Below are positions 8,687 to 64,000 of a DNA stretch of 64,000 nucleotides, in pieces; within the stretch, counting starts at the first letter, position 1, and each line of letters begins with the position of its first letter. The DNA is from Verrucomicrobium sp. (GTDB lineage Bacteria; Verrucomicrobiota; Verrucomicrobiia; Methylacidiphilales; UBA1321), in assembly GCA_017849585.1 (NCBI GenBank), contig JAFIGT010000027.1:1-64000 (forward strand). The letters are read 5' to 3'. Both the position numbers and the translations under genes were made by a program. The notes under the pieces are model-generated. The model was given only the letters and a program-made list of their open reading frames with translations, had not been told where the DNA came from and ran no database searches.

Positions 8687-11854
<3,168 letters not shown>

Positions 11855-15430: not shown

Positions 15431-15457
15431 TTGACGGAAATAGGTTTTACGTATAAT
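15431..15457 (+). promoter_or_regulatory. Candidate sigma-70 type promoter for the prepilin gene
   Basis: TTGACG (15431-15436) and TATAAT (15452-15457) are separated by 15 bases, shorter than the usual 17. The -10 hexamer is perfect and lies 22 bases upstream of the ATG at 15480. Confidence 0.4.
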
Positions 15458-15479
15458 CTAATCCATATTCCGAGGCGAT

Positions 15480-16112: not shown

Positions 16113-16157
16113 CCGATTCCCTTTTGAAACCAGAAAACACAAAGCAAGAGGAAGAGA

Positions 16158-17021: not shown

Positions 17022-17040
17022 TCAGAAAGACGCAAGCTGT

Positions 17041-35022: not shown

Positions 35023-35049
35023 AAACAAAAAATAGAAAGGTATCTGATT

Positions 35050-35679: not shown

Positions 35680-35685
35680 TTGTAA

Positions 35686-41142: not shown

Positions 41143-41353
41143 AACAGCTGAAGAAGGTGACAGGGCAACAATCGCACCGATTGCCGCAGAATTCAACATA
41201 AAATAAGTAATATATAAAAATCATTTAATTTGAAGGATGGCGTGACAAATAGCCGACTTCTGATAAGGTATTCTCATCTCAAACAGGAGCTTATTATATG
41301 TCGGGGTTATTTCTCATTCATTCGTCTCGGACTGAGTTGTCGGGGAGCGAGCA

Positions 41354-46074: not shown

Positions 46075-46271
46075 AGTAGGGATCTCTGGGGACAGATTCG
46101 ATTGAGATGCAGGGTCACTTTTCACACACACGGCGCTCCCGCACGTTCCTTTTCCCTCTTGATGAAACCCCAAAGCTTATAACCATAGTTACTTGCGTGA
46201 GTAACGGCTTTGAGCATAACAGAATTCATAGCAAACGCTAAAAATTCGAGAGGGGTTGACGAGCCGCCATA

Positions 46272-47465: not shown

Positions 47466-47668
47466 TTCCAGTCAATCGCCGTTCTGCAGTCCGGCGCGGG
47501 ACGGCGGCATTTTAACCCGATTAAGAACCCACTCTAGCCGCCAATGTGCCTAACGGCCTGCGGGCGGTGCCCATGAGCGGGGAAATGGTACGGGCTTTCG
47601 CCCGGTTGCGCCAAATGGCCCTTTTCAAATGCTTGCATCTCGACCTTTCACTAACCATCATAGCAATA

Positions 47669-48958: not shown

Positions 48959-48962
48959 TATT

Positions 48963-50105: not shown

Positions 50106-50114
50106 AAAAGAATT

Positions 50115-50807
50115 ATGGTGGACGCGGCAACGGAGCTGGAAGAAGAGCAGCGAATTCGTATGGAGGAAATTCACTTCCTCCAAAATATATGTGCCGCATT
50201 GCCAGACGAGCAGCAGCAAAACCGCATGCGTAGAGCTATGGTTGTTATGCTCTATTCTCATTTTGAAGGATATGCCCAATTTACTTTTGAGGTTTACCGC
50301 CGCGCTATTGAGAATAGCCAATCGAAATGCTGTGAAGTGCATCCGTCATTAGCCACAGCTGCGCTTAATGACATTTTTAAAGCCATTCGTAATCCGGATA
50401 AAGGGGTTAATCTTCTGCCAGATGCAATGCGAACTTTGGGTGAATTGCGACCATTAGCAATTGAAAGAGCATTCGTTGAAAAGGCATGGGACTTCGGCCA
50501 ACGAATAGCGACTGTTCCAGAAGAATTTGTCGATATGGAATCGAACCTAAAGCCGATTGTTCTTCGAAAAAATCTGTATCGTCTTGGTTTGCCGCATGAC
50601 TTATTTGACGAGTTAGAAGGAAGTATCAATAAATTGCTCAATTACAGGAACAATATTGCCCACGGCAGTAAAACCAGTGGTGTCGATGAAGTTGAATATA
50701 ACGAATTGCTACAGGCCGTTATTCGCATCATGGATGAATTGAAAAAGACTATTCTGACCGCAATTACTACGGAAGCCTTTCGACTTCCAGCCTCTCAACC
50801 GGCTTAA
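50115..50807 (+). CDS. HEPN-domain RNase-like protein (MAE_28990/MAE_18760 type)
   Basis: A 230-aa, mostly helical protein. The catalytic HEPN motif R-x4-H is NYRNNIAHGSK (R178, H183), and an N-terminal MRRAMVVMLYSHFEGYAQFTFEVYR segment matches the MAE_28990/MAE_18760-like group, which is known from restriction-modification and toxin loci. It would cut RNA when activated. It ends the methyltransferase-DUF262-HEPN operon and is AT-richer than the flanking genes. Confidence 0.8.
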   Translation: MVDAATELEEEQRIRMEEIHFLQNICAALPDEQQQNRMRRAMVVMLYSHFEGYAQFTFEVYRRAIENSQSKCCEVHPSLATAALNDIFKAIRNPDKGVNLLPDAMRTLGELRPLAIERAFVEKAWDFGQRIATVPEEFVDMESNLKPIVLRKNLYRLGLPHDLFDELEGSINKLLNYRNNIAHGSKTSGVDEVEYNELLQAVIRIMDELKKTILTAITTEAFRLPASQPA

Positions 50808-50983
50808 TTGGAGAAGGCGACCACAGTTGCAGGCATTTAGACTCCATTAAGTAATTCGTCCCACGGGACCTTGAATCGCCTCGGCGTTAGAGCCCGCATT
50901 CTCCAACGCCTTTCCTTTTTTAAGGTCGGCAAGCCGACACTAGACGTGCGGAAGCCAAGCTCCCGAAAATCAGCCAGCGAAAA

Positions 50984-51039
50984 GCGTTTTGCTCCCAAAC
51001 ACCCCGCACAAGTCAGGGGGTGTTTGGCGGGCAAAACGC
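50984..51039. repeat. Long imperfect hairpin
   Basis: GCGTTTTGC (50984-50992) pairs with GCAAAACGC (51031-51039), and CAAACACCCC (50996-51005) with GGGGTGTTTG (51017-51026), giving 19 perfect base pairs in two arms with a small internal loop and an 11-base terminal loop. No T-run follows, so a simple terminator is unlikely. A structured RNA or recombination site is possible. Confidence 0.7.
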
Positions 51040-51163
51040 GGAAAACATCCGACACTCGCCCCGGACGCGGAAGCAACTCGCCCCATCGGCAGGAGCGATT
51101 CGCAACGTTCGGAGAAGACACCGCAAGCGGCACCGGAAAGTCGTTTAACCCGAGCCAAGAAAC

Positions 51164-51179
51164 CCGTGGAATTCCACGG
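51164..51179. repeat. Perfect 16-bp palindrome
   Basis: CCGTGGAATTCCACGG is fully self-complementary with no spacer. It could be a protein-binding site; no owner is evident. Confidence 0.55.
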
Positions 51180-51359
51180 AAACATAATCGGACAATTCAG
51201 GGCCCGAGCAGGATTTCGAGATTAAGAAAGAATCAGCGGCTAGCTCAAAACAGTCTTGCTGCTTTCCCAGCATCAGGCTTGGACGCGCTTGTTAAGATCG
51301 GCCCAATCAATTTCGATTGTTGAATTCATCGGAAAAATAGAATTCTCCTCCTGAATTTG

Positions 51360-51647
51360 CTACGGAGTCTTTTGGCCGAAACGGATCGCCTCCGCGGTGG
51401 CACGCCGTTCCTCGGCATGCTCCCGTTCGTTCTGCTCCCAGTTATAGCAAGATTGGACCATAATCACGTCCGGATAGGATAAAGGAATAGTTGGGCAGGG
51501 CAATTCTCGAAAGCGACTCAGAACGGCTGGCGAGGCGTCCCGGCCACTAGCTGCGAGTGGCGGGCGGCGAAGCCTGCCGTTCAGGGTCGCGCCGTTGGCA
51601 GGCCGGAGCCTGGGTGCGGGCTCTGACGCACGCAGGCTCCGGTGGGT
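51360..51647 (-). pseudogene. C-terminal fragment of an unknown protein
   Basis: An open frame of 96 codons runs without a plausible start from just after a stop. Its end (SYPDVIMVQSCYNWEQNERE ... ending GQKTP) has the amphipathic, charged look of real protein, unlike the Pro/Arg-rich upstream half. The three hairpins at 51543-51642 lie inside the upstream half. I read it as a remnant; a short expressed protein from the internal Met (33 aa) cannot be excluded. Confidence 0.35.
51543..51642. repeat. Three successive hairpins (REP-like)
   Basis: GCCACT/AGTGGC (51543-51548, 51556-51561), GCCTGCC/GGCAGGC (51572-51578, 51597-51603) and CCGGAGCCTG/CAGGCTCCGG (51603-51612, 51633-51642) follow each other within 100 bases. 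They sit 36 bases beyond the stop of the stbC-like gene, so they may protect or end the stb operon transcript. Confidence 0.65.
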
Positions 51648-51677
51648 TCAGGTAGCCGATGATGAATTCATAATTTT

Positions 51678-52451
51678 CTAATTCAGTTTTTGGGATTGTT
51701 CAAAAAAGTACTTCCAGCCTGCGCGGAAAAGCCACTGGAGCAGTCCCGTTCCCACCGCGAACAGCCCCAAGCCAATCCACGGTGAAAACTGCATGCTGAC
51801 TCCAAGCGTGATGGCTCCGGCGATATAGCCAACGGTGAGCCAATGAATGGACGCTTGTTTGGTGAGATGTTTTACCAGTTTCTGGTTTTCCTCCTGAATG
51901 GCTTTGATGGTTTGCGTGGCCTCGGCAATCTGGGCGGTCGATTCGTTTTGAAGCTTCGACTGGCGCTGAAGTTGGCTGAGATCAAGGGTAAGCTCAATCA
52001 GGCCCGCTTTCAGCGAGTTGAGAGAGGTTTTAATCTCCTGTGCTTCGCTGGTAATTTTCTGAGTCGTCTGGTTGGCCTCCTTGAGTTGAGTCTGGGTCAG
52101 TTCGACTGCCTTGATGATGACGTTTGAGCTGCGGGTCGCTTCGCTGCGAAAATCCGTCACGAGTTTTTCAACTTCACGATTGATTCGCCAGAACGATTCC
52201 TCTTGGAGTTTCCGCGCATTGCCTTCGACCACACAGAACTCTTTGACCAGTTCACTCATCGCGCTTGGAATCCCGGCCATCTTGCGAGTGCAAGCAGCCA
52301 GCAGGATAGCGGCGGAGACCGGTGCGCTGTTGGGCACGCCACTGCCCACCTCGAAATAGGCTTGAACGACCAGACTGCCCTCTTTCGAGGGCAGTCCGTC
52401 GGTCAGGAAGTTCAACACGACATCGTTATTCTTGGGAGGAGTGTTATTCAT
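51678..52451 (-). CDS. Coiled-coil membrane protein in the stbC position
   Basis: The 257-aa product has a soluble N-terminal part (VVLNFLTDGLPSKEGSLVVQAYFEVGSG), a long coiled coil (about residues 100-205, with ELTQTQLKEANQTTQKITSEAQEIKTSLNSL-like heptads) and two membrane helices near the C-terminus (HWLTVGYIAGAITLGVSMQF; WIGLGLFAVGTGLLQWLF). ATG at 52451 overlaps the ParA-like stop by 8 bases. In R388 stbC follows stbB. No sequence homology can be shown here, only order and operon structure. Confidence 0.6.
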   Translation of the reverse strand: MNNTPPKNNDVVLNFLTDGLPSKEGSLVVQAYFEVGSGVPNSAPVSAAILLAACTRKMAGIPSAMSELVKEFCVVEGNARKLQEESFWRINREVEKLVTDFRSEATRSSNVIIKAVELTQTQLKEANQTTQKITSEAQEIKTSLNSLKAGLIELTLDLSQLQRQSKLQNESTAQIAEATQTIKAIQEENQKLVKHLTKQASIHWLTVGYIAGAITLGVSMQFSPWIGLGLFAVGTGLLQWLFRAGWKYFFEQSQKLN

Positions 52452-53247
52452 GAATGGAGAGCGGGTTGAATTCGTCAATGGGCTGGACACTTTTCGTGCC
52501 GGGACGGACAACCTTGTTTTGAATCGGGGCCGATTCCGGTATCAGAATCCTGGCGTTATCCTCGCACTGGAGGTAGAAACGGTTCAGGTAAAACTCAATC
52601 TCATACCGGCAAATCTGCGGAATGGATGCAGTCTTTGCTGCTTCCGCAAACGTCAAATGCCGTTTCTGCTCCGCGCTGGCGGCTTCAATAGCCTGAAGTG
52701 TCGTCGCGGTAATAGGCGGCAAATCGAGTACCGGCGCACCCTTGCGCTTAAACACTTCGGCCAATGCCGACTCATCAAACGTATGGCTGCGGAACCGGGC
52801 CGGATTCTTGACCAGCACGTAATCCGCCCGATCTCCCAAGGCGCGGTACGTCTTGGCCATGCTCGCCGTCGCGGTGGGGTCATCGGCGGCAAACATGAGC
52901 ACGGTCAGGCGTATTTCCCTCGCCTCCAATGCGTCCAGAACACGCAGCGATTCTACTGCCCCCAACAGGAAGTCGGTGGCTTGTGCCGGGAAATCGGCCA
53001 CGGCCATTGGCATGTCGGGCAAGGCCATGATGAGCTGTAAAAACTCGTCATGGGAGCTGGTGGCGTCAATAAAGGCGGCTTCGGGGAACCGTTTGCTTAA
53101 CGTGCGGTGCTCGGCATCGCAATCGACGGTGGCAATCGGTATCCCGGCGAATCGTGCCCATGAGATGAGGCTTTCGAGCGCGGTCGATTTGCCGATGCGA
53201 CCGCTGGATTGAAAGCAGGTGATGAGACGATGATTAATATCTGACAT
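52444..53247 (-). CDS. ParA/StbB-like P-loop ATPase
   Basis: The N-terminus ITCFQSSGRIGKSTALESLISWA contains a deviant Walker A (GRIGKST), then PIATVDCDAEHRTLSKRFP, which fits the ParA/MinD/SIMIBI fold with a switch Asp. The 267-aa size is right. StbB of IncW plasmids is a comparable ATPase needed for plasmid positioning and conjugation. A good ribosome-binding site (GAAAGGAAAATAGTAT) precedes the ATG. It lies between the StbA-like and coiled-coil genes. Confidence 0.72.
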   Translation of the reverse strand: MSDINHRLITCFQSSGRIGKSTALESLISWARFAGIPIATVDCDAEHRTLSKRFPEAAFIDATSSHDEFLQLIMALPDMPMAVADFPAQATDFLLGAVESLRVLDALEAREIRLTVLMFAADDPTATASMAKTYRALGDRADYVLVKNPARFRSHTFDESALAEVFKRKGAPVLDLPPITATTLQAIEAASAEQKRHLTFAEAAKTASIPQICRYEIEFYLNRFYLQCEDNARILIPESAPIQNKVVRPGTKSVQPIDEFNPLSIHE

Positions 53248-53279
53248 ATACTATTTTCCTTTCGGTTGTTTGTTTGGAT

Positions 53280-53636
53280 TCAAAGCTGGCCCCAATACTT
53301 CTTGGGCTTCCCTTGAGCGGGTCGTGTCAACGGGTCGGACGCAAACTCATCTTGTGGGGTTGCGTCTGCCGTCAATTCGGGCGCGGCGCAGTCCGGTGGC
53401 TCCGCTTGGGATTGGTGCGGTTTGGCTGGCGATGTTATTTTTGCGGTGACAACGCCCAACGGATAACGGCGTTTGAGCCGTCTTTTGATAAAAGCGTAAA
53501 CCAACTGTTTTTTGGTGCTGACACCCTTGGCGGCCAAAGCTTCGACAATTGCCTGCCAAGTCTCACGGTTGCGTCGCATTTCCATGATAAAATCGAAATA
53601 CGGCTCCAGTTTGCTGTGAAAAGAGATTCCGGGCAT
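53280..53636 (-). CDS. Small DNA-binding protein in the stbA position
   Basis: A 118-aa basic protein. The N-terminal 55 residues (MEMRRNRETWQAIVEALAAKGVSTKKQLVYAFIKRRLKRRYP) look like a helix-turn-helix, and the C-terminal half is a disordered Pro/Ala-rich tail. It is divergent from the relaxase and adjacent to ATCAG iterons, exactly where StbA of R388 binds its own promoter repeats. TTGACG and TATATA occur just upstream but with unusual spacing. The StbA assignment rests on position. Confidence 0.55.
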   Translation of the reverse strand: MPGISFHSKLEPYFDFIMEMRRNRETWQAIVEALAAKGVSTKKQLVYAFIKRRLKRRYPLGVVTAKITSPAKPHQSQAEPPDCAAPELTADATPQDEFASDPLTRPAQGKPKKYWGQL

Positions 53637-53666
53637 ATATATAAGGGCGTGTCGTCAACCCCCGTC

Positions 53667-53711
53667 ATCAGAAATGATCAGGTATCTCTATGAGTTATCA
53701 GATGTTATCAG
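53667..53711 (-). promoter_or_regulatory. Four ATCAG iterons in helical phase (stb regulator site)
   Basis: ATCAG starts at 53667, 53677, 53697 and 53707, i.e. spaced 10, 20 and 10 bases. The pairs read ATCAGAAATGATCAGGT and ATCAGATGTTATCAGGT. One protein monomer per helical turn on one face is the expected pattern. The site lies between the StbA-like start and the relaxase and is probably bound by the StbA-like protein. Confidence 0.65.
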
Positions 53712-53766
53712 GTGGAGAGATGTCACTTTTTGCGATGTGATAACTTCTGAGAACAAAATCCGCCTT

Positions 53767-53792
53767 CCTCTCGGCCTGAAAAGGCCAAGAGG
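53767..53792. repeat. Inverted repeat in the oriT region
   Basis: CCTCTCGGCC and GGCCAAGAGG pair at nine of ten positions with a 6-base loop (TGAAAA). It could be the oriT-side inverted repeat or a terminator for stray transcription. Confidence 0.55.
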
Positions 53793-53820
53793 GACATGTG
53801 TGCTTAGTTTTTATTTCTTC

Positions 53821-53960
53821 TTTTTGGGTTTCTTGGTGTGGTTCCTTTTTTCTTTGGTTTTGGGTTGAGGTTGCGTTTTTAGTTTTGGTTTGTTTTTTGA
53901 GTTTGAGGTTAAGTTTTCATTGGGTTCTTTGTCTTGGGGTTTGGTCTTTCTTTTGGTCTT
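53821..53960. other. T/G-only strand-biased tract
   Basis: By my count 122 of these 140 bases are T or G on the plus strand and only 7 are A. The open frame over it is just a by-product. Such strand bias suits single-strand DNA handling at an oriT or leading-strand start. Confidence 0.6.
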
Positions 53961-54033
53961 TCGGTAACGAGTGGAATAGAGAGGAAATGAGCATTCCTAT
54001 AGAATAGTTAAGTATAGATAGGCAATGATCGGT

Positions 54034-54076
54034 AATAGAGAATTATTTCTATTTTAACGCGCAACTTCTATAGAAT
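54034..54076 (+). other. Candidate oriT hairpin and nick-like sequence
   Basis: AATAGA (54034-54039) and TCTATT (54048-54053) form a perfect 6-bp stem. Five bases on, GCGCAACTTCTATAG (54059-54073) matches the R388 nick region GCGTATTGTCTATAG at 11 of 15 positions, with the cut expected between TCT and ATAG. TTCTATAGAA (54066-54075) is itself a palindrome and CTATAGAAT is repeated near 54000. It is 35 bases ahead of the relaxase gene, which is closer than in R388. Confidence 0.45.
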
Positions 54077-54105
54077 TATTTCGTTTATGGTCTATCATTA
54101 TTTTT

Positions 54106-57100
54106 ATGATCTCCAAAGCGGTATGCGCATCGGCCAGCGGGGCATTGGCCTATTTTGAAGCTCATCTCAACGTGGCCGACTATTACGCGGCATCGGAAGA
54201 AATCGATCGCGGGCAATTCATTGGCCGGGTCGCGGAACGATTAGGACTCGATGGGGCGGTTGTTACGCGGGAACGGTTCACGGCGTTCGTGGAATGCGAT
54301 CTGGAGGCGCTTGGCGCGGTCTCGGGCCGTCCGTGCACCTCCGAGATCAAATACATTGAATTCACCTATAGCGCCCCCAAGGCGGTGAGCGTCGTGGCCG
54401 CTCTGGATGACCGGGTGAAAGGCGAACTCTACGCTGCGGCTAAAGAAGAGTTAAACTGGTTTGAGACCCTCGTGGATGTGCGCGACCGTCGGGGCTCCTT
54501 GGTCGACTTGGAAATCACCAAGCCAACGGGAGAAATGATTGCCGCTCTGTTCCGGCATGAAACCAGCCGCACGAACGATCCCGATTTCCATGTTCATGCG
54601 CTGATTGGAAACGTCACGTGGGATGAGGAGCGGCAGCGCTACCTGGCCCTTCATTACGGGCGTATGCATGAGTTGCGCAAAACGCTGGACGCGCGGATTC
54701 ACAATAACCTCGCCGCTCGCATGGCGAAGCTGGGCTATCACGTGGAAGCCGCCGCCGCTGGCTTTGGGTTGAAGGAAGTTCCGGCTGACGCCCTCGCTCT
54801 TTTCAGCGAACGGGGCAATCAGGTCAAAACGGTGAAGGCACTCTTCAAGCGCGGCTATACCCCGGCGCAACTCCACAAGGCACTCGTGGGATTACCGGAA
54901 GATGAGAAACGTCGGTTATTGGCGAAATCGGATCTACTGGTGGAAAAGATGGGGCGACCGGAGAGCAAGCCCCGGCAGGTGATTGATCATGTGATGGATC
55001 AACAGGCCGTCACGCTGACTCGTCCTAAAAAGGTGGCGATTGCCAGTCAAACGTTGCGGGAAGATGTCGGCAAGCGATTGGAGAAAGCGGGGCTAGTGGC
55101 GGAGAAACCGGCTCTTTCTGCGGTGAACGTGGAATTGAACAGGGAGGAGGCCATCATACAGGGCACTCAAATTGCTTTTGAAAAGCAGAGTGTCGTTCGC
55201 CTCGAACTCCTTCACGGGGAAATCATCCGGCTCGCTCCCGGCGTGGTGTCCAATGAGCTGTTAATGGAACAATTGCGGGATGATCGCCGTTTTATGATCC
55301 GGCGCGTGGACGGCCATGAACTGGTGACAACCAAGGAGATTCTTTCCGAAGAAAAAACGCTCCTCACAACCATTGTTCGGGGGCTGGATCGGAGGGAACC
55401 ACTTACACCCAACTATGAGCCGCCCGCTTCGCTCGTGGCAACGGAGCAACGACTGGAGGAATTGCTGGCCCAAGCGCGTGCCCGTGGTGAGGAATTGACT
55501 CGCGCTCAAGCCGAGCAATGGCTCAATCAGTTCGCGGCGATTCACCAGTATGTCTGCACTTCGGCCGATCACTACTTGAATATTCGCGGGGGCGCTGGTA
55601 CTGGAAAATCTTTCTCACTCGAAATTCTCGTCGGGGAGAGCCAGCGTGCGGGTCGTCCAGTGTTCCTCTGTGCGCCGTATGGCGAGCAAGCGCGGGTGGT
55701 GCTTCGCAATGAAGCGGCTCGGATTGAAGCCGCTGGAGCGCCTGACGTAGCGCGTGCTTTCGCTCAAGCCAATACGGTCGATGCGCTGATTGTGAGGGCG
55801 CGTCAGGATTCGGAATTATTGCATGGCGCGGATATTTACGTCGATGAGGCCGGATTGCTCGACACTCCCAAAGCACTCGCATTAGTCAGAGAAGCGGAAC
55901 GGGCTGGGGCACGAGTCATCTTCCAAGGCGATACCGAACAAATGGCGGCGGTGGGCCGTGGTCAGCCTATTAAACTGCTTCAGGAGGAATTGCAACTCGG
56001 CATGCATGTGCCTCGCGCTTCCATTTCCCGGCGGCAACTTCGCAGTGAGGATAAAAAGCTCGCGGCGGATTTGTCGTCGGGTGATGATTCCAAGTTTGCC
56101 GATGCGGTGCAAAAGATGATGGACCGGGGCATGGTCTGCGAGACCGCTCCCGATGTTGCCATTGAAGAAGTGGCCAAAGAAATTGTTGAGGCTCGTGCGG
56201 CGGGTCAGGAAATTGTGGCGGTATCATCTGTCCATCGGATCAGCGACGCGCTGGCCGAGCGGATTCACTCCCTGCACCTCGAAAAAAACGGGAGCGATGG
56301 GCAATCGTTTCTGGACGTGCATCTCAAACGGGAATTGCAGCCTGCGGAATTGAAGTCCTCGCAATTCTATCGCGTGGGTGATGTGGTGGAATTCAAAGAC
56401 AAAGGGAGCGGGGCGATTGTACGTGCTCCCGTGGCGTCGGTTCTCCCGAACGCGGTGGTGGTGGTGGCTCGTGAGCATCAATCACGGCAGATACCATTGA
56501 CGCAGGTTCGGGCGGTGTTTGATTCGTCGCGCATCGAGCGTGGTTCCGGTGAAACCCTCCTCCTTCAGGAAAAAATCAAACAGGACACTCGTGTCTTTGA
56601 GAAAGGATCGCGGCAAATCATCTCCGCAGTCAAGGACGGTACGGTGCATTTCAAGAGTGGATTAAAGCTCTCTGTAACGGATGGCCGTGTCCGGCAAGGC
56701 GATTGTCTCACCGATTACAAGGCGCAGGGTTTGAAAGGCATGCAGGTGCGTGGAATCGAGGATAACGGTTCGGCTTCCTCCATGGCCAACAAGGAAGCGT
56801 TTCACGTCAAAGGCACGCGCCACGTTGACAATCTCAAGCTCCATGTCGAAAACAAAAGTCTCTATGTCGAATTGATCCAACGTTCCAATATCAAGTGTTC
56901 CGCGCTCCATCTGGAACGACAACCGGTCGCGCCTGCGGTCGTTCCGCTCGCTCCAAGGGTTGACAACGCCACATTGGTTATGAAGGCATTTCAATGGGGC
57001 AAGGAATTCACGGCGCGTTTCTCCCTCCAGAAAGTCGCCGAACAGGTGAGGTCCCAACTCGCCCGGTTCGAGGCCATACGCTCGCGCGTCGTGGAAGTTC

Positions 57101-57384
57101 CGGCGCAAACGGTCGAGGGCAAGGAAGCGGCTCAGGAAAAGACGACCCCGGCGGTGAAACCGGCCATGCAGGAAAAACAGAGTCTGATTCAGAAAGTGGT
57201 GGAACATCCCCCACGTATCAAACAGCCCTTCAAAGTTACGCAAGCCGTGAAGGAGATCGTGAAAGAATCGCTCCCGGAAAAACTTCTCCCAAAGCTGGCT
57301 CCCAAGAAAATCATTCCCAAGCCCTCGCAACGGCATTTCCCCGATCCGCCTCCTCACCGACAGGGGCCAAGCCTCGGCTTGTAA
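54106..57384 (+). CDS. MobF-family conjugative relaxase-helicase (TrwC/TraI-like)
   Basis: The 1092-aa protein nicks oriT and unwinds the plasmid. The relaxase domain (about residues 1-300) has the tyrosines Y16, Y26 and Y27 (VADYYAASEE) as in TrwC, and the metal-binding H-x-H in HETSRTNDPDFHVHALIGN. The RecD-like helicase has Walker A RGGAGTGKSF (about 492-503) and Walker B DIYVDEAGLLD (about 575). The C-terminus is Lys/Pro-rich and of unknown role. No strong Shine-Dalgarno is seen before the ATG. No coupling protein or secretion genes follow in the window. Confidence 0.92.
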   Translation: MISKAVCASASGALAYFEAHLNVADYYAASEEIDRGQFIGRVAERLGLDGAVVTRERFTAFVECDLEALGAVSGRPCTSEIKYIEFTYSAPKAVSVVAALDDRVKGELYAAAKEELNWFETLVDVRDRRGSLVDLEITKPTGEMIAALFRHETSRTNDPDFHVHALIGNVTWDEERQRYLALHYGRMHELRKTLDARIHNNLAARMAKLGYHVEAAAAGFGLKEVPADALALFSERGNQVKTVKALFKRGYTPAQLHKALVGLPEDEKRRLLAKSDLLVEKMGRPESKPRQVIDHVMDQQAVTLTRPKKVAIASQTLREDVGKRLEKAGLVAEKPALSAVNVELNREEAIIQGTQIAFEKQSVVRLELLHGEIIRLAPGVVSNELLMEQLRDDRRFMIRRVDGHELVTTKEILSEEKTLLTTIVRGLDRREPLTPNYEPPASLVATEQRLEELLAQARARGEELTRAQAEQWLNQFAAIHQYVCTSADHYLNIRGGAGTGKSFSLEILVGESQRAGRPVFLCAPYGEQARVVLRNEAARIEAAGAPDVARAFAQANTVDALIVRARQDSELLHGADIYVDEAGLLDTPKALALVREAERAGARVIFQGDTEQMAAVGRGQPIKLLQEELQLGMHVPRASISRRQLRSEDKKLAADLSSGDDSKFADAVQKMMDRGMVCETAPDVAIEEVAKEIVEARAAGQEIVAVSSVHRISDALAERIHSLHLEKNGSDGQSFLDVHLKRELQPAELKSSQFYRVGDVVEFKDKGSGAIVRAPVASVLPNAVVVVAREHQSRQIPLTQVRAVFDSSRIERGSGETLLLQEKIKQDTRVFEKGSRQIISAVKDGTVHFKSGLKLSVTDGRVRQGDCLTDYKAQGLKGMQVRGIEDNGSASSMANKEAFHVKGTRHVDNLKLHVENKSLYVELIQRSNIKCSALHLERQPVAPAVVPLAPRVDNATLVMKAFQWGKEFTARFSLQKVAEQVRSQLARFEAIRSRVVEVPAQTVEGKEAAQEKTTPAVKPAMQEKQSLIQKVVEHPPRIKQPFKVTQAVKEIVKESLPEKLLPKLAPKKIIPKPSQRHFPDPPPHRQGPSLGL

Positions 57385-57404
57385 TTTCAAACATGGAGGA
57401 CTCT

Positions 57405-57734
57405 ATGACGGCACCCCATCCTTTTCTGGACAGACCACACTATTACGATTCCGATGTGCATGGAAATGTTTCCGGCATCACCTTCCATCTGCCCACCTAT
57501 CGCCGGTTTGTTCCTTATCCGTGGCTGCTTTATTCCGAAATGAACAAGGAAGAAACCCAGATCACCCTCTACTATACGCATTGCATCGTTTCGGTGAAGG
57601 GGAGATGCCTGAAGTCGGTCCATGAGCGGATTGAAAAGTTTGAACTCTGCTGGGTAAGCGAGGGCATTCCGTCCAACATTTCCGATTCTGATCCCGCGAT
57701 TTTTCGCATCGAGATTTCCGAAGTGGAACGCTGA
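57405..57734 (+). CDS. Small protein of unknown function
   Basis: A 109-aa product starting at ATG 57405, with GGAGGA four bases upstream as ribosome-binding site. Sequence (PHYYDSDVHGNVSGITFHLPTYRRFVPYPWLLYSEMNKEETQITLYYTHCIVSVKG) suggests a mixed beta fold; no family recognised. It begins 20 bases after the relaxase stop and is likely in the same transcript. The longer open frame to the left is a shadow of the relaxase gene. Confidence 0.6.
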   Translation: MTAPHPFLDRPHYYDSDVHGNVSGITFHLPTYRRFVPYPWLLYSEMNKEETQITLYYTHCIVSVKGRCLKSVHERIEKFELCWVSEGIPSNISDSDPAIFRIEISEVER

Positions 57735-57756
57735 GCGGTTCTCCGATTGCGAAAAT

Positions 57757-57777
57757 CGCCATGTCGCGGGCATGGCG
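57757..57777. terminator. Hairpin after the relaxase operon
   Basis: CGCCATG and CATGGCG form a 7-bp stem with a 7-base loop, followed by an A/T stretch (ACAAATAATTT). It may end the relaxase transcript, though the T-run is imperfect. Confidence 0.5.
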
Positions 57778-57933
57778 ACAAATAATTTCGTTTCCATTCC
57801 TTTCCGAGCCTTTTCGCGCCGTTCCGTGGTTTTCCGCTGCCTTCCGCCGCTTTGCAGGGCTTTTCATGCTATGCATGTATGGCACGTCATTTTGTCCTTG
57901 AGTTTTATTTTTCCGCGCCGTAATAGTAGGTGC

Positions 57934-58374
57934 ATGGAACAATCATCAAAGAAACGCAAGCGCCTGACACTCGTGTTGCGCACTGATCTGATCGATGCCG
58001 TGCAGGAAAAAGCTGCCGTCGTCAGCCAAGGCCCCAACCAGTTCGTCAATATGTGCGTGGAGGGCATTCTTCTGGCTATGGAAGCCGAAGACCCGAACGA
58101 ATATGAAATGCCGATCCTGGAACTTTACAACAAGGTCAAGGGACGGATGTCTCTTTCGAGCAAGGCGGCCATGAAACTGTGCTCGGTACTCGTTCCACAA
58201 CTCTACGACATCGACCGGCATGAAAAACAGTTCCTTGTTGGTCTCATTAACAAACATGAAGGCAAGCTGTCGCCGCAGATATTCAGCGGCTACTGCAAGC
58301 TGGCTGAAAAGATGAACCAAGACCGCATCGCCAATGAGCGGCAATTGGCCAAGCTCCAAGCCAAGTCAAAATAA
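57934..58374 (+). CDS. Ribbon-helix-helix-like DNA-binding protein
   Basis: A 146-aa product from ATG 57934 (MEQSSKKRKRL). The N-terminal 50 residues (LTLVLRTDLIDAVQEKAAVVSQGPNQFVNMCVEGILLAMEA) fit an RHH/Arc-type fold; the rest is helical and Lys-rich. The frame could extend to 57772, but that stretch consists of repetitive TTCC-rich DNA and is not family-like. The role in replication or mobilisation control is inferred from position. Confidence 0.55.
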   Translation: MEQSSKKRKRLTLVLRTDLIDAVQEKAAVVSQGPNQFVNMCVEGILLAMEAEDPNEYEMPILELYNKVKGRMSLSSKAAMKLCSVLVPQLYDIDRHEKQFLVGLINKHEGKLSPQIFSGYCKLAEKMNQDRIANERQLAKLQAKSK

Positions 58375-58442
58375 GGGAATAAAGCCAACAAAAACGCCGA
58401 GGCGACTCCGCTTTAACAACAAAACTCAATAGAAAGGAATCT

Positions 58443-58742
58443 ATGATCGAACCGAACGCCACCACTCCCGAAAAGACTCCGGCTATCGGGCAGAATCCCT
58501 CACCGGAACCATTGGTGGCTCCCGCTCCCGTCGAGCAATTGTGGCTGACAAGGCAAGTCGCTCAATACATGCAAGTCAGTCTTAAAACAATCTATAACCG
58601 GCGTAAAAACGGATTGCCCTACGTGTTGGTGGGAGGTGCGGTGCGGTTTGTTCCGCAGGACGTGAAAGACTATGTGGCCAGCAACGGTAACGTGGAAAGG
58701 CACCGCCAGCGTCAAGCCGTGCGCAAGGGAGGCAAATTATGA
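58443..58742 (+). CDS. Excisionase-like helix-turn-helix protein
   Basis: A 99-aa protein with a MerR/Xis-type winged helix-turn-helix: LWLTRQVAQYMQVSLKTIYNRRKNGLPYVLVGGAVRFVPQDVKDYVASN. The N-terminal 35 residues are Pro-rich. AAAGGAATCT is the ribosome-binding site. It may be the recombination directionality factor for the integrase, or a plasmid regulator. The stop overlaps the next start by ATGA. Confidence 0.75.
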   Translation: MIEPNATTPEKTPAIGQNPSPEPLVAPAPVEQLWLTRQVAQYMQVSLKTIYNRRKNGLPYVLVGGAVRFVPQDVKDYVASNGNVERHRQRQAVRKGGKL

Positions 58743-59149
58743 TTATGCCATACCACCTGCCGCCGAACGCTTATTTTGACGATCCGGTGGATCGCATTGA
58801 ACCCCTCGTCAACAAGGAGGAGAAAGCCGATTTTGCGGCGCTGCGGGAGGCGATCAATCGTACTCTCGGGTGGGCGATTCGCCCTGGGATGACGCAAATT
58901 GGCCTTCGTGTTCATCTCATCATACTGGCCATCAGCCCCGGCCAGTTACCTTGCAAGAGGCCGTCCCTGAGTTGGTGCGCCCGCGCACATGGCGTCACTC
59001 GTCAACGTGCGTGGAGCATCTGGCAAGACCTCAAGCATGAATTGAAAGATCATGTCCGGTTTCCTCAGAGACGTTCTCATGCCCATTCGGGTGCGCCGGT
59101 CAACTTGCAGAGTAAAGGTAAGAATCCAACGTCTCATAATCCCAAATAA
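58739..59149 (+). CDS. Small protein with helix-turn-helix-like segment
   Basis: A 136-aa product with a possible helix-turn-helix LSWCARAHGVTRQRAWSIWQDLKHELKD (about residues 80-108). The start overlaps the excisionase-like stop, so the pair is translated together. No family is recognised; a replication or copy-number role is only a possibility. Confidence 0.55.
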   Translation: MIMPYHLPPNAYFDDPVDRIEPLVNKEEKADFAALREAINRTLGWAIRPGMTQIGLRVHLIILAISPGQLPCKRPSLSWCARAHGVTRQRAWSIWQDLKHELKDHVRFPQRRSHAHSGAPVNLQSKGKNPTSHNPK

Positions 59150-59296
59150 CGGATATTTAGGCCAGCTTGCAGAATTGCCGTCTTTAAAAAATTTTGTGAA
59201 ATGAGAAGGGTGATTTCGTGGAATCGCTATCATTAGCGTGACTGTTGAAAAGGTTCTCCTTGATGGAACCTCCTAAATTTGCCAGCGTGACACGCC

Positions 59297-59776
59297 ATGC
59301 AATCCTCGTGGCCACAAGAGCAACCTGAACCGGATAAGGTGGTTTCACCTTTTGCCCATGCTCAGGCTGCCGTACCGCAAAAAGGCGGTGGAAATCAGAA
59401 ACTTTTCATCTCGATCGGATTGGCGGTCATTTTGTTAATCATTGGCGTGGTGAGCGGCATCTTTCTCACGCGCTATTTGAACGATCCCTATCGAACACTG
59501 GAAACATTCCCAGTGGCAAAGTATCTGGAAAGCCATCGTGCGCTGGCGGGTTCCAAATTCAGGGCAGAGCTTCGCGTCGAGGCCGATTTGGGATGGAAAG
59601 AGGGAGTGGGCAAGTTGATGCTTTTTTCGACCAAGGAAGATTTCCGTCCCATTGCGATATTGGTGCCGATGGCGGTGGCCAAGGAGATTTATTTCACCAA
59701 GGGGCAGACTTACATTGCTGAGCTGGAAGTCAAAGAAGGAGGGTTGATCTATGCAAATTCGTGCCGGAAAAATTAG
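59297..59776 (+). CDS. Single-pass membrane protein of unknown function
   Basis: A 159-aa protein with a Pro/Gln-rich cytoplasmic start, one membrane helix (LFISIGLAVILLIIGVVSGIFL, about 37-58) and a small extracytoplasmic beta-rich domain (KFRAELRVEADLGWKEGVGKLMLFSTKEDFRPIAILVP). It overlaps the next gene by 26 bases with an AAGGAGGG site inside it. It is the first of four envelope-related genes. Confidence 0.65.
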   Translation: MQSSWPQEQPEPDKVVSPFAHAQAAVPQKGGGNQKLFISIGLAVILLIIGVVSGIFLTRYLNDPYRTLETFPVAKYLESHRALAGSKFRAELRVEADLGWKEGVGKLMLFSTKEDFRPIAILVPMAVAKEIYFTKGQTYIAELEVKEGGLIYANSCRKN

Positions 59777-61751
59777 CCGCCATTTGGCGACCTCACTCTT
59801 TCTTGCCGTCTCGTTACTGAGCGTTTGGGCTCAGGATAACTCCGCTTCCGGTAATGCAGCGACCGGCTTGGCCTCGTCGAACGGCTCCAGTTCTACCGGA
59901 GCGCCCGCCGCGACGACCGCGAAAGCCTCTGATGAGGCCGCCAAGCAGAACAATGGCGGCGCTGGACCTGCAACCTCATCAGCGTTGGATTATCTCTTTA
60001 ATCGCAAGCCCAAAGAGGGTACGGCGGCCAAGGAAGCACTGGATGCCAATCAGGTTGCCAAGTCCAAGGCCATTGCTCAGGAAGCGTTGGGTGGAGGCCG
60101 GATTGAAGATCTGCAAATGCGGGCACGATTTGAAAAATATCTGGCCACCACAGAGGTTTCTCAGGAGCAACTTAAAGCCTATGCCGCCGACTCCGATAAA
60201 GTGCTTCAGCTATTACGGGAGGGAAAAGAATTTGAGGCATGGAAGCAGCTCTACAAGCTCGCCTCCTATGAGACGATAGATGCCGGGGTCAGTTGGGAGT
60301 TGGCCAACCGCATTGAATCGATCTGGAATGCAGACAAGACGAACAACCAAATTTCCAAGCAAAACGACCAGCTCCGGCAGGACATCGATCGCTCTAATCG
60401 CAGCGCCGATATGATGAGCGATGATATTCGCAAGCAAGAACTCGAATATCAACGCAAGATGCGTGAAGGCAATAGCAATAAATCGTCCCGGAATCAAAAT
60501 AATGGCGGCGTTCCACAGATGAATGTCAATAATCAAGACGGGAGCGGCGGAAATGGTGGCTCGTTCATGCCTGATGCCAGCTCAGTCATGGGCAAGCTTC
60601 AATTGACTCAAGAATACCTCAACACGCTTGAGTCCAAGGCCAAGATCAAAATGAATGAGTTGAAAGCTCAAAAGTTGTTCGATCAGGCCAAGGCTGATTT
60701 TGCGGATTATATCACCACTCTTTACCAAAGTGGACGGCATCGTCACGTCTTGATCGCTTCCGATTTCTGGCGGCGTATTTTCGATGAAGGCCAATACCCC
60801 GTCTCGATGGCACAGCAGGTCAATGCGTCATTGGAAATGAACCGGGATGTTCAATCGGCGGTTGCCGTATTCGAGACTAACCTGAAGGAAAACGATATTG
60901 CGGCAGCCACAGATCGGCTGCAGGAGGCGTTTATGACGAGCGAGTTTAATCCGGCCCTGCTCGGCTTGCCTCGCGTTGAAAAGAAAAAGGTTGAGGTCTT
61001 CACCAAGCGTCTTGCGAGAATGCAGAATATGATCGAAGCGCGGGATTTCTCCAACCTCGAATCATTGCTGGATGACATGAAGAAAATGGCTCCAGACTTT
61101 GATACGACCAAGCCCACGGCCATCGTGAATGCTGTGAAGCTGGAAAGTCAGCTTCGTTTGGGCAAGGCCAAGATTGCCGCGCAGCAGGGCGATTTGAAAC
61201 AAGCAATGGAGGAATTTCAAGCCGCTGCTGAGGCGTGGCCGGGCAATCCCGATTTGAAGGACAAGGCGCTGACCTTCTTTAATTCACAGGATGTCCAGAC
61301 TCAATCGCTCACGGAGTTTGACCGTTTGGTGGCTGACAACAACTACCGCGCCATCTTCGACAAACAGCTCATGTTCGCTCCAGCGATGAAGGATGACAAA
61401 AAACGTCAGGAACAATTGAAGGATGCCCTTACCAAAGTGAAGAACGCAGAAATGGCCATCGAGAAAGCCAATCTCATGAGAGCCAATGGAGACGTCTTTG
61501 GTGCATGGGAAACGGTTGAAACGGCGATTAAAGACCTGCCGAACGATTTGAAGCTCAATACGCTTCGCGGCGATCTCTCCGGCAAAGGCGCGGAATTCGT
61601 GGCAGCCATCAACAAGGCACGGGAAGCGGAAGATAAAAAAGAATTGGGTTTTAGCCTGACATGGTACGCTATTGCGCAGCGTTCCTATCCCGCGAGCCAA
61701 ATAGCCAATCAGGCGATTGATCGCCTGAGCAAACAAATTCTGGCGCAGTGA
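59751..61751 (+). CDS. Secreted TPR-like helical protein
   Basis: A signal peptide (about 30 residues, ending SVWAQ) precedes a Ser/Ala/Thr-rich linker, then mostly amphipathic helices. The stretch from about residue 390 (AVAVFETNLKENDIAAATDRLQEAF; AKIAAQQGDLKQAMEEFQAAAEAWPGNPDLKDKAL) resembles tetratricopeptide repeats. The 666-aa product should be periplasmic or surface-bound. It overlaps the previous gene and ends 15 bases before the ABC gene. No family is recognised. Confidence 0.7.
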   Translation: MQIRAGKISRHLATSLFLAVSLLSVWAQDNSASGNAATGLASSNGSSSTGAPAATTAKASDEAAKQNNGGAGPATSSALDYLFNRKPKEGTAAKEALDANQVAKSKAIAQEALGGGRIEDLQMRARFEKYLATTEVSQEQLKAYAADSDKVLQLLREGKEFEAWKQLYKLASYETIDAGVSWELANRIESIWNADKTNNQISKQNDQLRQDIDRSNRSADMMSDDIRKQELEYQRKMREGNSNKSSRNQNNGGVPQMNVNNQDGSGGNGGSFMPDASSVMGKLQLTQEYLNTLESKAKIKMNELKAQKLFDQAKADFADYITTLYQSGRHRHVLIASDFWRRIFDEGQYPVSMAQQVNASLEMNRDVQSAVAVFETNLKENDIAAATDRLQEAFMTSEFNPALLGLPRVEKKKVEVFTKRLARMQNMIEARDFSNLESLLDDMKKMAPDFDTTKPTAIVNAVKLESQLRLGKAKIAAQQGDLKQAMEEFQAAAEAWPGNPDLKDKALTFFNSQDVQTQSLTEFDRLVADNNYRAIFDKQLMFAPAMKDDKKRQEQLKDALTKVKNAEMAIEKANLMRANGDVFGAWETVETAIKDLPNDLKLNTLRGDLSGKGAEFVAAINKAREAEDKKELGFSLTWYAIAQRSYPASQIANQAIDRLSKQILAQ

Positions 61752-61766
61752 GGCGGGGATGACGTT

Positions 61767-63425
61767 ATGCGGCATCACGGGGTATACGTCGCCAATCTGG
61801 CGGTTCTGGCAGGGAACAAAACGCTGTTAAAAGGCGTTTCCTTCGATCTTCCCACAGGAAGTTTTACAGCTATTATTGGCGCATCGGGGTGCGGTAAAAG
61901 CACCTTGCTTAAAACGTTGGCGGGATTGATTGCCCCAAGTTCTGGAGCTGTTTTTCTCGCGGGTAATCCCGTACAGACCTTGAAGGAAGAGTTTCCTCTG
62001 GCGGTGGGATACCTGCCCCAGTTTGGGGCATTCCATCCCGATTTGACCGTTGAGGAAAACCTGAACAACGCCGTGGCGCTACGCCTTCCGAGTACGGTTT
62101 CTTCCGAGGTCAAGGCGAACTGGCTCAATCACATTATTCAACTGGCGCGACTCGATTCTTTTTTGCGCCAGCCCTACAAAACGCTTTCAGGAGGGCAAAT
62201 GCGCCGGATGGCCCTCGCCGAGGAATTGATTGGTGATCCCGCTTTTCTTCTTCTGGATGAATTGACGAGCGGACTCGATGCTTTCTCGGATCGCGAAATG
62301 ATGCAGTGGTTGCGTGACTTGGCGCATGAACATTCCAAGACGGTCGTTTTGGTCACACATGCGACTTATCATCTGGAATATTGCGATTCCATTTTGTTTC
62401 TGCACCAAGGAAGGCTCATTCGATACGGCAGCCTTGAATCGCTGCTGCAAACTCATGAAGTGAGTTCGATTACCGATCTCTACGAAATTTATCAGACAAG
62501 GACTGTGGAATTGTCAGAATCGGAGGTTGTGGAGATTTTGCCAGCCGAACCAGCTTTGCTCAAAACGGCGAAGCCTCCCTCCGGTTGGTCACAATTTGCA
62601 ACCTTGCTTTGTCGCCAAGCGGAACTTTTCTGGCGGGATAAGGGTCAGATTTGGCTCCATCTCGCCCTTATCATTACTTTCCCTGCGTTAGTGGCGGTCT
62701 TTGCCTATAACGGCCTTCCCCAAGTGCGGCAGCTTACGCTCTCGCTGGAATCGAACATTCTCAAAACGCTGGCCGAACAGCTTCTCTATCTCAAAGAATC
62801 GTTTCATGCGGCTTCGCTCGTTTCAGGACTGGCCATGTTCCAAGTGATCCTGCTCACATTGATAGGAGCCAATAACGGAGCGCGGGAAATTGCCAAGGAA
62901 CGCAACGTTCTGACAAAGGAGCTGAATGCGGGATTGTCACCTTTTGCCTACGTTACGACCAAGTTTCTCCAGCTTTTAGTATTGTGTGCGATACAGGCTT
63001 TTTGGATGGCGTGGTTTGTCAAGGTACTCTGCGGGTTTCCGGGCTCACTGTTTGCCCAGTTCGGAGTGCTGTTTGCGACGACCTTGGCAATGAGTACCAC
63101 CTGTCTCGCTATTTCGGCCTATGCACCAACACCGGAGCGGGCTTCGCTTCTGGCCATTTATCTGGTGGGATTCCAGCTTCCACTTTCGGGAGCGGCCCTT
63201 TCTCTTCCCGATTGGCTCTCGGTCATTTGCCGTCCCTTCATTGCCGCCTATTGGGGATGGTCTGGCTACCTGCGGACGTTTGAGAGCACCCGCCATTACG
63301 ATATTGTCAAGCAGTCACGGGATATTTTCATCGCGCCGTATGAATTGAGTTTTTCCGTTCTTGGGGTGCATGTTGCCGTAGCACTGTTTTTGACGTGGTA
63401 TTTTGTGGGGAGGACCAGAAGCTGA
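61767..63425 (+). CDS. ABC half-transporter, ATPase-permease fusion (ABCG-like)
   Basis: The first 230 residues are an ATPase: Walker A GASGCGKST, signature LSGGQMRRMALA, Walker B FLLLDELTSGLDA. The C-terminal half is an ABC-2 type membrane domain of about six helices (FPALVAVFAYNGL; AIQAFWMAWFVKVL; LAIYLVGFQLPLSGAALSL). The ATPase-first fused order is as in ABCG/eukaryotic White proteins and is less common in bacteria. 552 aa. Overlaps the next gene at TGATG. Substrate unknown. Confidence 0.85.
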   Translation: MRHHGVYVANLAVLAGNKTLLKGVSFDLPTGSFTAIIGASGCGKSTLLKTLAGLIAPSSGAVFLAGNPVQTLKEEFPLAVGYLPQFGAFHPDLTVEENLNNAVALRLPSTVSSEVKANWLNHIIQLARLDSFLRQPYKTLSGGQMRRMALAEELIGDPAFLLLDELTSGLDAFSDREMMQWLRDLAHEHSKTVVLVTHATYHLEYCDSILFLHQGRLIRYGSLESLLQTHEVSSITDLYEIYQTRTVELSESEVVEILPAEPALLKTAKPPSGWSQFATLLCRQAELFWRDKGQIWLHLALIITFPALVAVFAYNGLPQVRQLTLSLESNILKTLAEQLLYLKESFHAASLVSGLAMFQVILLTLIGANNGAREIAKERNVLTKELNAGLSPFAYVTTKFLQLLVLCAIQAFWMAWFVKVLCGFPGSLFAQFGVLFATTLAMSTTCLAISAYAPTPERASLLAIYLVGFQLPLSGAALSLPDWLSVICRPFIAAYWGWSGYLRTFESTRHYDIVKQSRDIFIAPYELSFSVLGVHVAVALFLTWYFVGRTRS

Positions 63426-64000
63426 TGCCACGCACCGCTTGCATTCTGATGGCGTGGATTCTGGCGGTTGCCATGGCAAGTGCGGCAGATGTAGTTGAAA
63501 AAATCTCGTTACCCACTTCAACGGAAATTCAGCGGGCCGATCTTTATTATTGGAAAGAAATTCGCCGTCCCCAAGCCGTACTGATCCTTTGTCCCGGCTA
63601 TAACGGTAACGGCGAGGGATTGATTAGACAAAAAATCTGGCAGGAGTTTGCAAAGACGCATCGACTCGGTTTAGTAGGGTTGTCTTTTGCCTCAAAGGGC
63701 GATCCGCATACAGGCGGTTATTATTATGCTTCCCAAGGATCGGGAGAGTTGCTTTTGACCGGCATTCGAAAAATCTATGGTCGAGAGTTACCCTTGGTCC
63801 TCTATGGATTTTCGGGAGGAGCGCATTTCACATCTCGGTTTGAAGAATGGAAACCCGAACAGGTTGTCACATGGTGCGCTTATTCGGCCGGATGGTGGAA
63901 TGAACCACTGTCTTCACAAAATTGCCCTCCTGGAATAGTGATTTGCGGGGATGAGGATGCACGCTTTGGAGCGTCACTCATTTATTTTAAACAAGGACGT
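63425..64000 (+). CDS. Secreted alpha/beta hydrolase (partial, cut by window end)
   Basis: The frame starts with ATG at 63425 overlapping the ABC stop and runs to the last base. The first 23 residues are a signal peptide (ACILMAWILAVAMASAA). AVLILCPGYNGNGEGL and LVLYGFSGGAHF (nucleophile Ser in G-x-S-G-G) mark an alpha/beta hydrolase; later VICGDEDARFG would carry the acid. His is beyond the window. Esterase or lipase on a cell-surface substrate is possible. Confidence 0.75.
   Translation, partial: MPRTACILMAWILAVAMASAADVVEKISLPTSTEIQRADLYYWKEIRRPQAVLILCPGYNGNGEGLIRQKIWQEFAKTHRLGLVGLSFASKGDPHTGGYYYASQGSGELLLTGIRKIYGRELPLVLYGFSGGAHFTSRFEEWKPEQVVTWCAYSAGWWNEPLSSQNCPPGIVICGDEDARFGASLIYFKQGR

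What the first reader, a model, noticed from the sequence alone, without database searches (positions are those of the whole stretch)
59297..64000. Envelope module on the element: membrane protein, helical protein, ABC half-transporter, hydrolase
Seen: four genes that overlap or nearly overlap (26-base overlap, 15-base gap, TGATG), three exported or membrane. An ATPase-permease fusion in ABCG order and a secreted alpha/beta hydrolase beside a TPR-like secreted protein are not typical plasmid backbone genes. Inference: cargo for surface or lipid modification, possibly against phages or for mating contact.
Basis: partly seen in the sequence, partly recalled or inferred. Interest (0 to 1): 0.55.

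Follow-up and report, generated by a model that had tools for sequence, protein, structure and literature searches.

The report
Mobile envelope cassette for Rhs-like proteins
A mobile DNA element in a Verrucomicrobiota bacterium carries a conserved gene set (a membrane exporter, two secreted enzymes and a sugar-chain ligase) that travels with Rhs-like secreted shell proteins and probably helps to put them on or beyond the cell surface.

Summary
The four genes are real and translationally coupled; the hydrolase runs on to 64249. An empty site in a congeneric genome shows that they lie inside a 30.4-kb integrated, relaxase-bearing element (contig 46103-76463, 5-bp repeat TCGAT at both ends). They open a six-gene run: TM protein, TPR protein, ABC half-transporter, hydrolase 1, hydrolase 2, O-antigen-ligase-like protein (59297-67049). 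A secreted YD/Rhs-fold protein lies in the same element. The first three genes have a chromosomal version in this genome and across the class, so the refutation test is half met; the hydrolase and ligase genes are accessory. Of 36 loci picked by hydrolase 2 or ligase, 31 carry YD/Rhs genes. In 62 genomes of the order, 10 of 13 strong ligase places have a YD gene within 16 kb (0.27 expected). A sequenced 99.8-kb MOBF plasmid of Opitutaceae TAV5 carries all nine cassette families within 20 kb. Best reading: an export, processing and glycan-ligation module for Rhs-like exoproteins, moved by a mobilizable element. The gene content and linkage are well supported; the biochemistry is inferred. No defence link was found, and nothing supports a role in mating.

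The parts
46103..64000 (.). integrated mobile element, left part (whole element is contig 46103-76463, 30.4 kb, with TCGAT at both ends)
   Evidence: empty site in congener G002:C34; GC 47.5% against 56.9% and 52.5% in the flanks
46272..47465 (+). tyrosine recombinase (integrase) at the left end of the element
   Evidence: Phage_integrase E 5.5e-8; 68% and 72% relatives on relaxase-bearing contigs G008:C153 and G010:C24
52444..53247 (-). backbone gene, 267 aa, ParA-like by eye (P-loop-like GRIGKST); 72-73% relatives beside relaxases
   Evidence: no Pfam match
54106..57384 (+). TrwC/MOBF-type relaxase-helicase
   Evidence: TrwC E 2.1e-43, AAA_30 E 8.8e-29; 65-68% relatives in a neighbouring genus
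58443..58742 (+). HTH_17 (excisionase-type) protein of the backbone
   Evidence: Pfam 29.1 bits against cut-off 27; kept beside the relaxase in L110, L114, L115, L118 and L076
58739..59149 (+). 136-aa backbone protein; the cargo slot begins after it
   Evidence: relatives in L110, L115-L119
59297..59776 (+). TM: single-pass membrane protein with a small soluble domain, first gene of the cassette
   Evidence: family F2 in 21 loci
59751..61751 (+). TPR: secreted all-helical TPR-like protein
   Evidence: model mean pLDDT 72.5, pTM 0.47
61767..63425 (+). ABC: ATPase-permease half transporter, ABC-2/ABCG order, motifs intact
   Evidence: Walker A, Q-loop, LSGGQ, Walker B and H-loop residues kept in 16 of 16
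63425..64000 (+). HYD1: secreted alpha/beta hydrolase, continues to contig 64249
   Evidence: Ser/Asp/His in 26 of 28

Best explanation
The genes are the first four of a mobile envelope cassette that serves YD/Rhs-fold secreted proteins. Shown: gene order, operon structure, position in an integrated mobilizable element, and genomic linkage of hydrolases and ligase to YD/Rhs genes across the phylum. Inferred: YD/Rhs proteins and small partners leave the cytoplasm by the Sec route; the TM-TPR-ABC complex, a duplicated and mobilised relative of a chromosomal envelope machine, moves a partner molecule (probably a glycolipid or lipid-linked substrate) across the inner membrane or carries the assembly onward through its periplasmic TPR arm; the O-antigen-ligase-like enzyme joins glycan to the shell protein or its anchor; the two secreted hydrolases trim or transfer acyl groups. 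The product would be a displayed or released Rhs-like exoprotein acting in cell contact or competition, spread by the element.
For: Six coupled genes. YD/Rhs-type genes in 31 of 36 loci picked by hydrolase 2 or ligase. In 62 genomes of the order ligase and YD co-occur in 9; 4 have ligase only, 1 YD only, 48 neither (Fisher p 3e-7); 10 of 13 ligase places at E<1e-30 have YD within 16 kb against 0.27 expected. The element's own YD protein (contig 73490-74833) is modelled at pLDDT 82.8, pTM 0.73 as all-beta; its best PDB matches are Rhs effectors and teneurins (E down to 4e-14). MOBF plasmid CP007054.1 holds all nine families. Hydrolase 1 triad and ABC motifs intact. Empty site. The same backbone in G009:C32 carries an Rhs gene, three orphan Rhs tips, both hydrolases and the ligase in the same slot.
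Against: TM-TPR-ABC is complete in only 14 of the 36 loci, and three-gene copies stand without hydrolases, ligase or YD in the stretch held (L046-L049): its tie to YD is weaker than that of the hydrolases and ligase. Five of the 36 loci show no YD/Rhs gene in the stretch held. The C8 YD protein is short (447 aa), with no Rhs-associated core found and no recognised toxin tip. Between the ligase and YD genes C8 carries a seven-gene radical-SAM peptide-type block instead of the rhodanese and MauE genes. Profiles were built from members of such loci. TM-scores of the YD model to single Rhs structures are low (at most 0.49).
Confidence: 0.5

Rival explanations
1. Envelope lipid or surface-polysaccharide modification module: the ABC protein flips a glycolipid, the O-antigen-ligase-like protein joins or polymerises it, the hydrolases edit it; YD genes are frequent neighbours only because both are island cargo.
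For: ABC2_membrane, Wzy_C and distant TIGR04370 are families of glycan export and polymerisation; PMT_2-type glycosyltransferase genes lie beside two copies; TM-TPR-ABC exists chromosomally without YD.
Against: Apart from those two PMT_2-type genes no glycosyltransferase was seen in the cassettes; YD/Rhs genes are within reach in 31 of 36 loci, far above random placement.
Confidence: 0.27
2. Exporter and processing enzymes for the radical-SAM peptide-type product encoded next to the cassette in this element (contig 67280-73502).
For: The block lies between the ligase and YD genes on the same strand; the radical SAM protein resembles YydG-type peptide epimerases (E 1e-23).
Against: The radical SAM protein has a close relative (49%) in only one other of 188 genomes of the class, G200:C85, which shows the block in the same order, whereas the cassette is far more widespread.
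Confidence: 0.08
3. Chromosomal envelope operon carried along by chance on the element, with no special link to YD proteins or mobility.
For: TM-TPR-ABC is widespread (55 of 98 genomes have a TPR match) and has a copy on C18 of the same genome.
Against: The window copy lies in another clade (SH-aLRT 99) with copies of other families; six-gene order kept in other families; plasmid copy in another class.
Confidence: 0.1
4. Anti-phage or mating-contact module.
For: It sits beside a relaxase, and the left cargo slot of the same element carries methylase, GmrSD_N and HEPN genes typical of defence.
Against: No PADLOC family for the cassette genes beyond generic ATPase matches; most related loci show no linked relaxase; no type IV secretion genes recognised in the element.
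Confidence: 0.05

Closest known systems
Rhs / polymorphic toxin systems (Zhang et al. 2012, PMC3482391: passages read; Rhs diversification paper PMC2935791: search listing only)
   Same: YD-repeat/Rhs-fold proteins, orphan Rhs-core tips with variable C-termini and insertion-sequence traffic at sister loci
   Different: The cassette adds TM-TPR-ABC, two secreted hydrolases and an O-antigen-ligase-like protein. No toxin tip or immunity gene was identified in the window element; the 12 passages read do not describe this gene set.
WaaL/PglL-type O-antigen ligases and O-oligosaccharyltransferases (PF04932)
   Same: Wzy_C domain (E 3e-14), arginines R114, R162 and R175 kept in 36 of 36 and the His in 30 of 36
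   Different: Extra soluble C-terminal part, constant pairing with two secreted hydrolases, YD/Rhs neighbour
Chromosomal TM-TPR-ABC locus of Verrucomicrobiae (unnamed; own-genome copy on C18)
   Same: TPR and ABC families shared
   Different: Another clade; no hydrolase or ligase genes beside the C18 copy
ABCG-order ABC-2 exporters
   Same: ATPase then ABC2_membrane in one chain
   Different: No assigned substrate; operon partners unlike those of known bacterial members (recalled)
Opitutaceae TAV5 plasmid CP007054.1 cassette
   Same: TM, TPR, ABC, both hydrolases, ligase, rhodanese, MauE and YD on one mobilizable MOBF plasmid
   Different: Other gene order; its TPR falls nearer the chromosomal clade; annotated only as hypothetical proteins and one ABC transporter

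Membership tests
Integrative mobilizable element | Clean insertion relative to a relative, with short direct repeats | tested here: met
   G002:C34 empty site; TCGAT at 46098-46102 and 76464-76468
Integrative mobilizable element | Own integrase and relaxase | tested here: met
   Phage_integrase, TrwC
Integrative mobilizable element | No conjugation machinery of its own | tested here: inconclusive
   No type IV secretion family among element proteins given to Pfam; a few small ORFs were not scanned
Rhs/YD polymorphic toxin system | YD/Rhs shell protein | tested here: met
   C8 YD: RHS_repeat 23.2 bits against cut-off 22; model matches Rhs effectors E 4e-14
Rhs/YD polymorphic toxin system | Rhs-associated core and variable C-terminal toxin tip | tested here: not met
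   Not seen in the window element: the YD protein is 447 aa and Pfam shows only one RHS repeat; present at sister loci L110, L112, L124, L146. TIGR03696 was not run on the C8 protein itself
Rhs/YD polymorphic toxin system | Immunity gene | not tested
   No immunity model was searched
O-antigen ligase superfamily (PF04932) | Wzy_C domain above the gathering score | tested here: met
   53.4 bits against 31.7
O-antigen ligase superfamily (PF04932) | Glycan transfer activity | not testable with these tools
   Needs biochemistry
Secreted serine alpha/beta hydrolase (HYD1) | Ser-Asp-His triad | tested here: met
   26 of 28 homologues each
Secreted alpha/beta hydrolase (HYD2) | Nucleophile and His | tested here: met
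   Nucleophile Ser in 26, Cys in 9 of 35; His in 34 of 35; profile matches in the PDB are not significant
ABC half-transporter, ABC-2/ABCG order | ATPase plus ABC2_membrane fusion with intact motifs | tested here: met
Chromosomal housekeeping operon | Window copy is the vertically inherited chromosomal copy | tested here: not met
   Tree: the C18 copy groups with congeners, the window copy with cassette copies of other families
Anti-phage defence system | Specific PADLOC family match | tested here: not met
Exosortase A-associated O-glycosylation ligase (TIGR03097) | Score above model cut-off | tested here: not met
   20.6 bits against 188.1

The most novel reading that the evidence does not exclude
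A phylum-wide, undescribed biogenesis and display system for Rhs/YD proteins: instead of type VI injection or classical toxin delivery, a dedicated glycan ligase and two secreted Ser/Cys acyl-transfer enzymes, in part of the loci with a TPR-coupled ABC-2 machine, mature the YD shell and fix it to the cell surface or a surface glycan, and the whole set moves between lineages on MOBF elements.
Probability: 0.3. Interest if true: 0.8.

Novelty: new variant of a known kind. Interest (0 to 1): 0.6.

Why it matters
How Rhs/YD proteins without a type VI or insecticidal-complex partner leave the cell and are displayed is poorly understood (recalled). A compact gene set kept next to them across Verrucomicrobiota, and present whole on a sequenced plasmid of a cultured isolate, turns that into a testable problem. 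It also shows that an envelope machine has been duplicated and mobilised as cargo.

Tried and rejected
Rejected: (1) plain chromosomal housekeeping operon: only TM-TPR-ABC is chromosomal here, and the window copy is in another clade. (2) Defence. (3) Viral origin: no relative in viral contigs. (4) Exosortase/PEP-CTERM O-glycosylation: TIGR03097 far below cut-off. (6) Integrase attachment repeats of 14 bases or more and terminal inverted repeats: none found. (7) Papers: no paper held all of 'YD repeat', 'O-antigen ligase', 'ABC transporter', 'integrative and conjugative', none 'Verru_Chthon', none 'MauE', 'rhodanese' and 'O-antigen ligase' together; searches gave nothing on this gene set in titles, starts of abstracts or the passages read (PMC3482391 and PMC4960237 passages). 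The library holds open-licence papers only.

Limits of counts: the 36 loci were chosen because they hold hydrolase 2 or ligase, and the profiles were trained on members of such loci. Left out of the 36: four hits with an N-terminal domain of hydrolase 2 only (G064, G071, G178, G217); weak or partial ligase places, of which G036:C42 (L154) and G030:C208 (L153) were mapped but not counted and G016:C8, G021:C14 and C99, G013:C98, G036:C4, G026:C130 and C105, G009:C66 were not mapped; three YD places of G003 without cassette (L147-L149). One search used 13 ligase places (two pieces in G003 joined) and 16 of 17 YD rows (two G011 pieces joined). In a further 20 loci picked by hydrolase 1 across the phylum (chosen from the list, not all of it), 15 of 20 hold ligase and 10 of 20 YD/Rhs; several contigs are cut short.
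Full report
OBSERVATION. All four genes are present as described: 59297-59776, 59751-61751 (26-base overlap), 61767-63425 (15-base gap) and a fourth from ATG 63425 (TGATG). The window is the first 64 kb of a 90,698-base contig of a 4.79-Mb draft genome in 43 contigs, so I read on. The fourth gene ends at 64249; it overlaps a second secreted hydrolase (64246-65760) by 4 bases, and that is followed after 2 bases by a membrane protein with a Wzy_C (O-antigen ligase) domain, 65763-67049. The real unit is at least six coupled genes: TM, TPR, ABC, HYD1, HYD2, WZY.

THE ELEMENT. In the congeneric genome G002 the sequences left and right of the region are adjacent: C8:41354-46102 and C8:76464 onward match G002:C34 on one strand with a 5-base overlap, and a local comparison shows TCGAT once in G002 and at both ends in our genome. 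The insertion is therefore 46103-76463, about 30.4 kb. It has 47.5% GC against 56.9% and 52.5% in the flanks and is itself a mosaic: backbone 53.6%, six-gene cassette 48.9%, downstream block 40.2%. It holds an integrase at its left end, a methylase/GmrSD_N/HEPN cargo group, a TrwC relaxase, an HTH_17 protein and a 136-aa protein, then the cassette. The backbone recurs with 65-72% relaxase and integrase relatives in a neighbouring genus, with other cargo in the stretches held of G008:C153, G011:C49 and G004:C148, but in G009:C32 with an Rhs gene, Rhs tips, HYD1, HYD2 and WZY in the same slot. No type IV secretion family was recognised, so it is best called mobilizable.

THE CASSETTE ELSEWHERE. 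The TPR protein has a relative in 55 of 98 related genomes, including a second copy on contig C18 of this genome. Some copies of the wider clade stand as TM-TPR-ABC only, and some cassettes (TAV5 plasmid, G282, G290, G011) use a TPR closer to the chromosomal type, so the three-gene machine seems to have joined cassettes more than once (inference). The full order TM-TPR-ABC-HYD1-HYD2-WZY-RHOD-MauE-YD is seen in MAG Cf509_bin41 and in Spartobacteria LR76. RHOD is a membrane-anchored rhodanese and MauE a MauE/DoxX protein. C8 lacks these two and has YD at 73490-74833.

LINK TO YD/RHS PROTEINS. The YD family profile (A4) finds 10 of 62 genomes of the order and the ligase profile (A1) 13 of 62. Both occur in 9, ligase alone in 4, YD alone in 1 (Fisher p 3e-7). 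Of 13 ligase places at E<1e-30, 10 have YD within 16 kb, against 0.27 expected under random placement within each genome (approximate genome sizes, contig breaks ignored). In 36 loci picked by HYD2 or WZY: WZY with HYD2 35, both hydrolases with WZY 30, YD/Rhs type 31, RHOD with MauE 18, TM-TPR-ABC 14, all nine families 7. HYD2 relatives occur in 28 of 286 genomes of the class at E<=1e-15, four of these matching an N-terminal domain only; HYD1 relatives in 41 of 387 of the phylum at E<=1e-20, where Rhs, two hydrolases and ligase again stand side by side in several loci (ligase in 15 of 20, YD/Rhs in 10 of 20). The mobilizable MOBF plasmid CP007054.1 of termite-gut isolate Opitutaceae TAV5 carries all nine families within 20 kb; of the TAV5 genome paper I saw the search listing and start of abstract only (PMC4358385).

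STRUCTURES AND MOTIFS. The TPR protein is predicted all-helical with modest confidence and only generic TPR-like matches. The C8 YD protein is predicted all-beta, pLDDT 82.8; the top 29 PDB matches are Rhs effectors, teneurins and a related TcdB2-TccC3 structure, best E 4e-14, TM-score at most 0.49. ABC motifs are complete. HYD1 keeps Ser/Asp/His in 26 of 28; HYD2 has Ser in 26 and Cys in 9 of 35 at the nucleophile and His in 34 of 35; the ligase keeps three arginines in 36 of 36 and the His of the NSHLTW motif in 30 of 36. The roles given to these residues are recalled knowledge of the families.

MECHANISM. Shown: gene content, order, mobility and linkage. Inferred: the cassette exports, edits and glycan-ligates YD/Rhs-type exoproteins or their anchor. 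The strongest rival is a surface glycan/lipid modification module in which YD genes are only frequent neighbours.

NOVELTY. No Pfam or NCBIfam model above cut-off names TM, TPR, HYD1 or HYD2. The paper searches gave no description of this gene set; they cover open-licence papers only. Rhs/YD proteins, O-antigen ligases and mobilizable elements are known kinds; their standing combination with two secreted hydrolases and a TPR-ABC machine is, as far as I could search, undescribed.

Noticed in passing
contig C8 67280-73502 (beyond the window; L002:14280-19000 and L003:1-1502): Seven-gene block that looks like a peptide (RiPP-type) biosynthesis operon: a 185-aa precursor-like protein with a hydrophobic NVNILVNINV-type C-terminus, a YydG-like radical SAM protein (E 1e-23), two methyltransferase-like proteins of related sequence, a Tat-type protein. 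The same order is kept in G200:C85, whose precursor-like protein has a longer repetitive hydrophobic tail. Reminiscent of proteusins (recalled).
   Followed up: partly
window 47546-50807: Left cargo slot of the element: N6_N4 DNA methylase, GmrSD_N/DUF262 protein (PADLOC NsnA and PD-T4-2_A matches) and a HEPN protein: a possible defence group.
   Followed up: partly
window 35686-41199: Pseudopilin-like gene group with distant matches to Verru_Chthon cassette proteins A, B, C and D, all below the curated cut-offs; outside the element.
   Followed up: partly
L110 (G009:C32) 4444-17057: Rhs gene split around an IS1595-type transposase gene, followed by three orphan Rhs-core tips, each with its own signal peptide and a different C-terminus, an ankyrin protein and another transposase.
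   Followed up: partly
HYD2 family, C8 hydrolase 2 (contig 64246-65760), nucleophile position: The nucleophile is Ser in 26 and Cys in 9 of 35 relatives, unusual for a plain esterase family; may point to acyl transfer.
   Followed up: no
contig C8 78020-79816: Protein ending in a PEP-CTERM-like tail (VPEPSTMALL... by eye), so the host may use exosortase-type sorting; outside the element.
   Followed up: no
contig C8 75037-75513: IS66-transposase-like remnant (by eye) near the right end of the element; may have cut down the YD end of the cassette.
   Followed up: no
contig C8 ends, 3-218 and 90415-90696: The contig starts and ends with the same coding sequence in opposite orientation, probably a repeat at which assembly stopped.
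   Followed up: no
L156 (CP007054.1) 34473-41375: Three genes (287, 180 and 505 aa) repeated as a large inverted duplication on the TAV5 plasmid.
   Followed up: no
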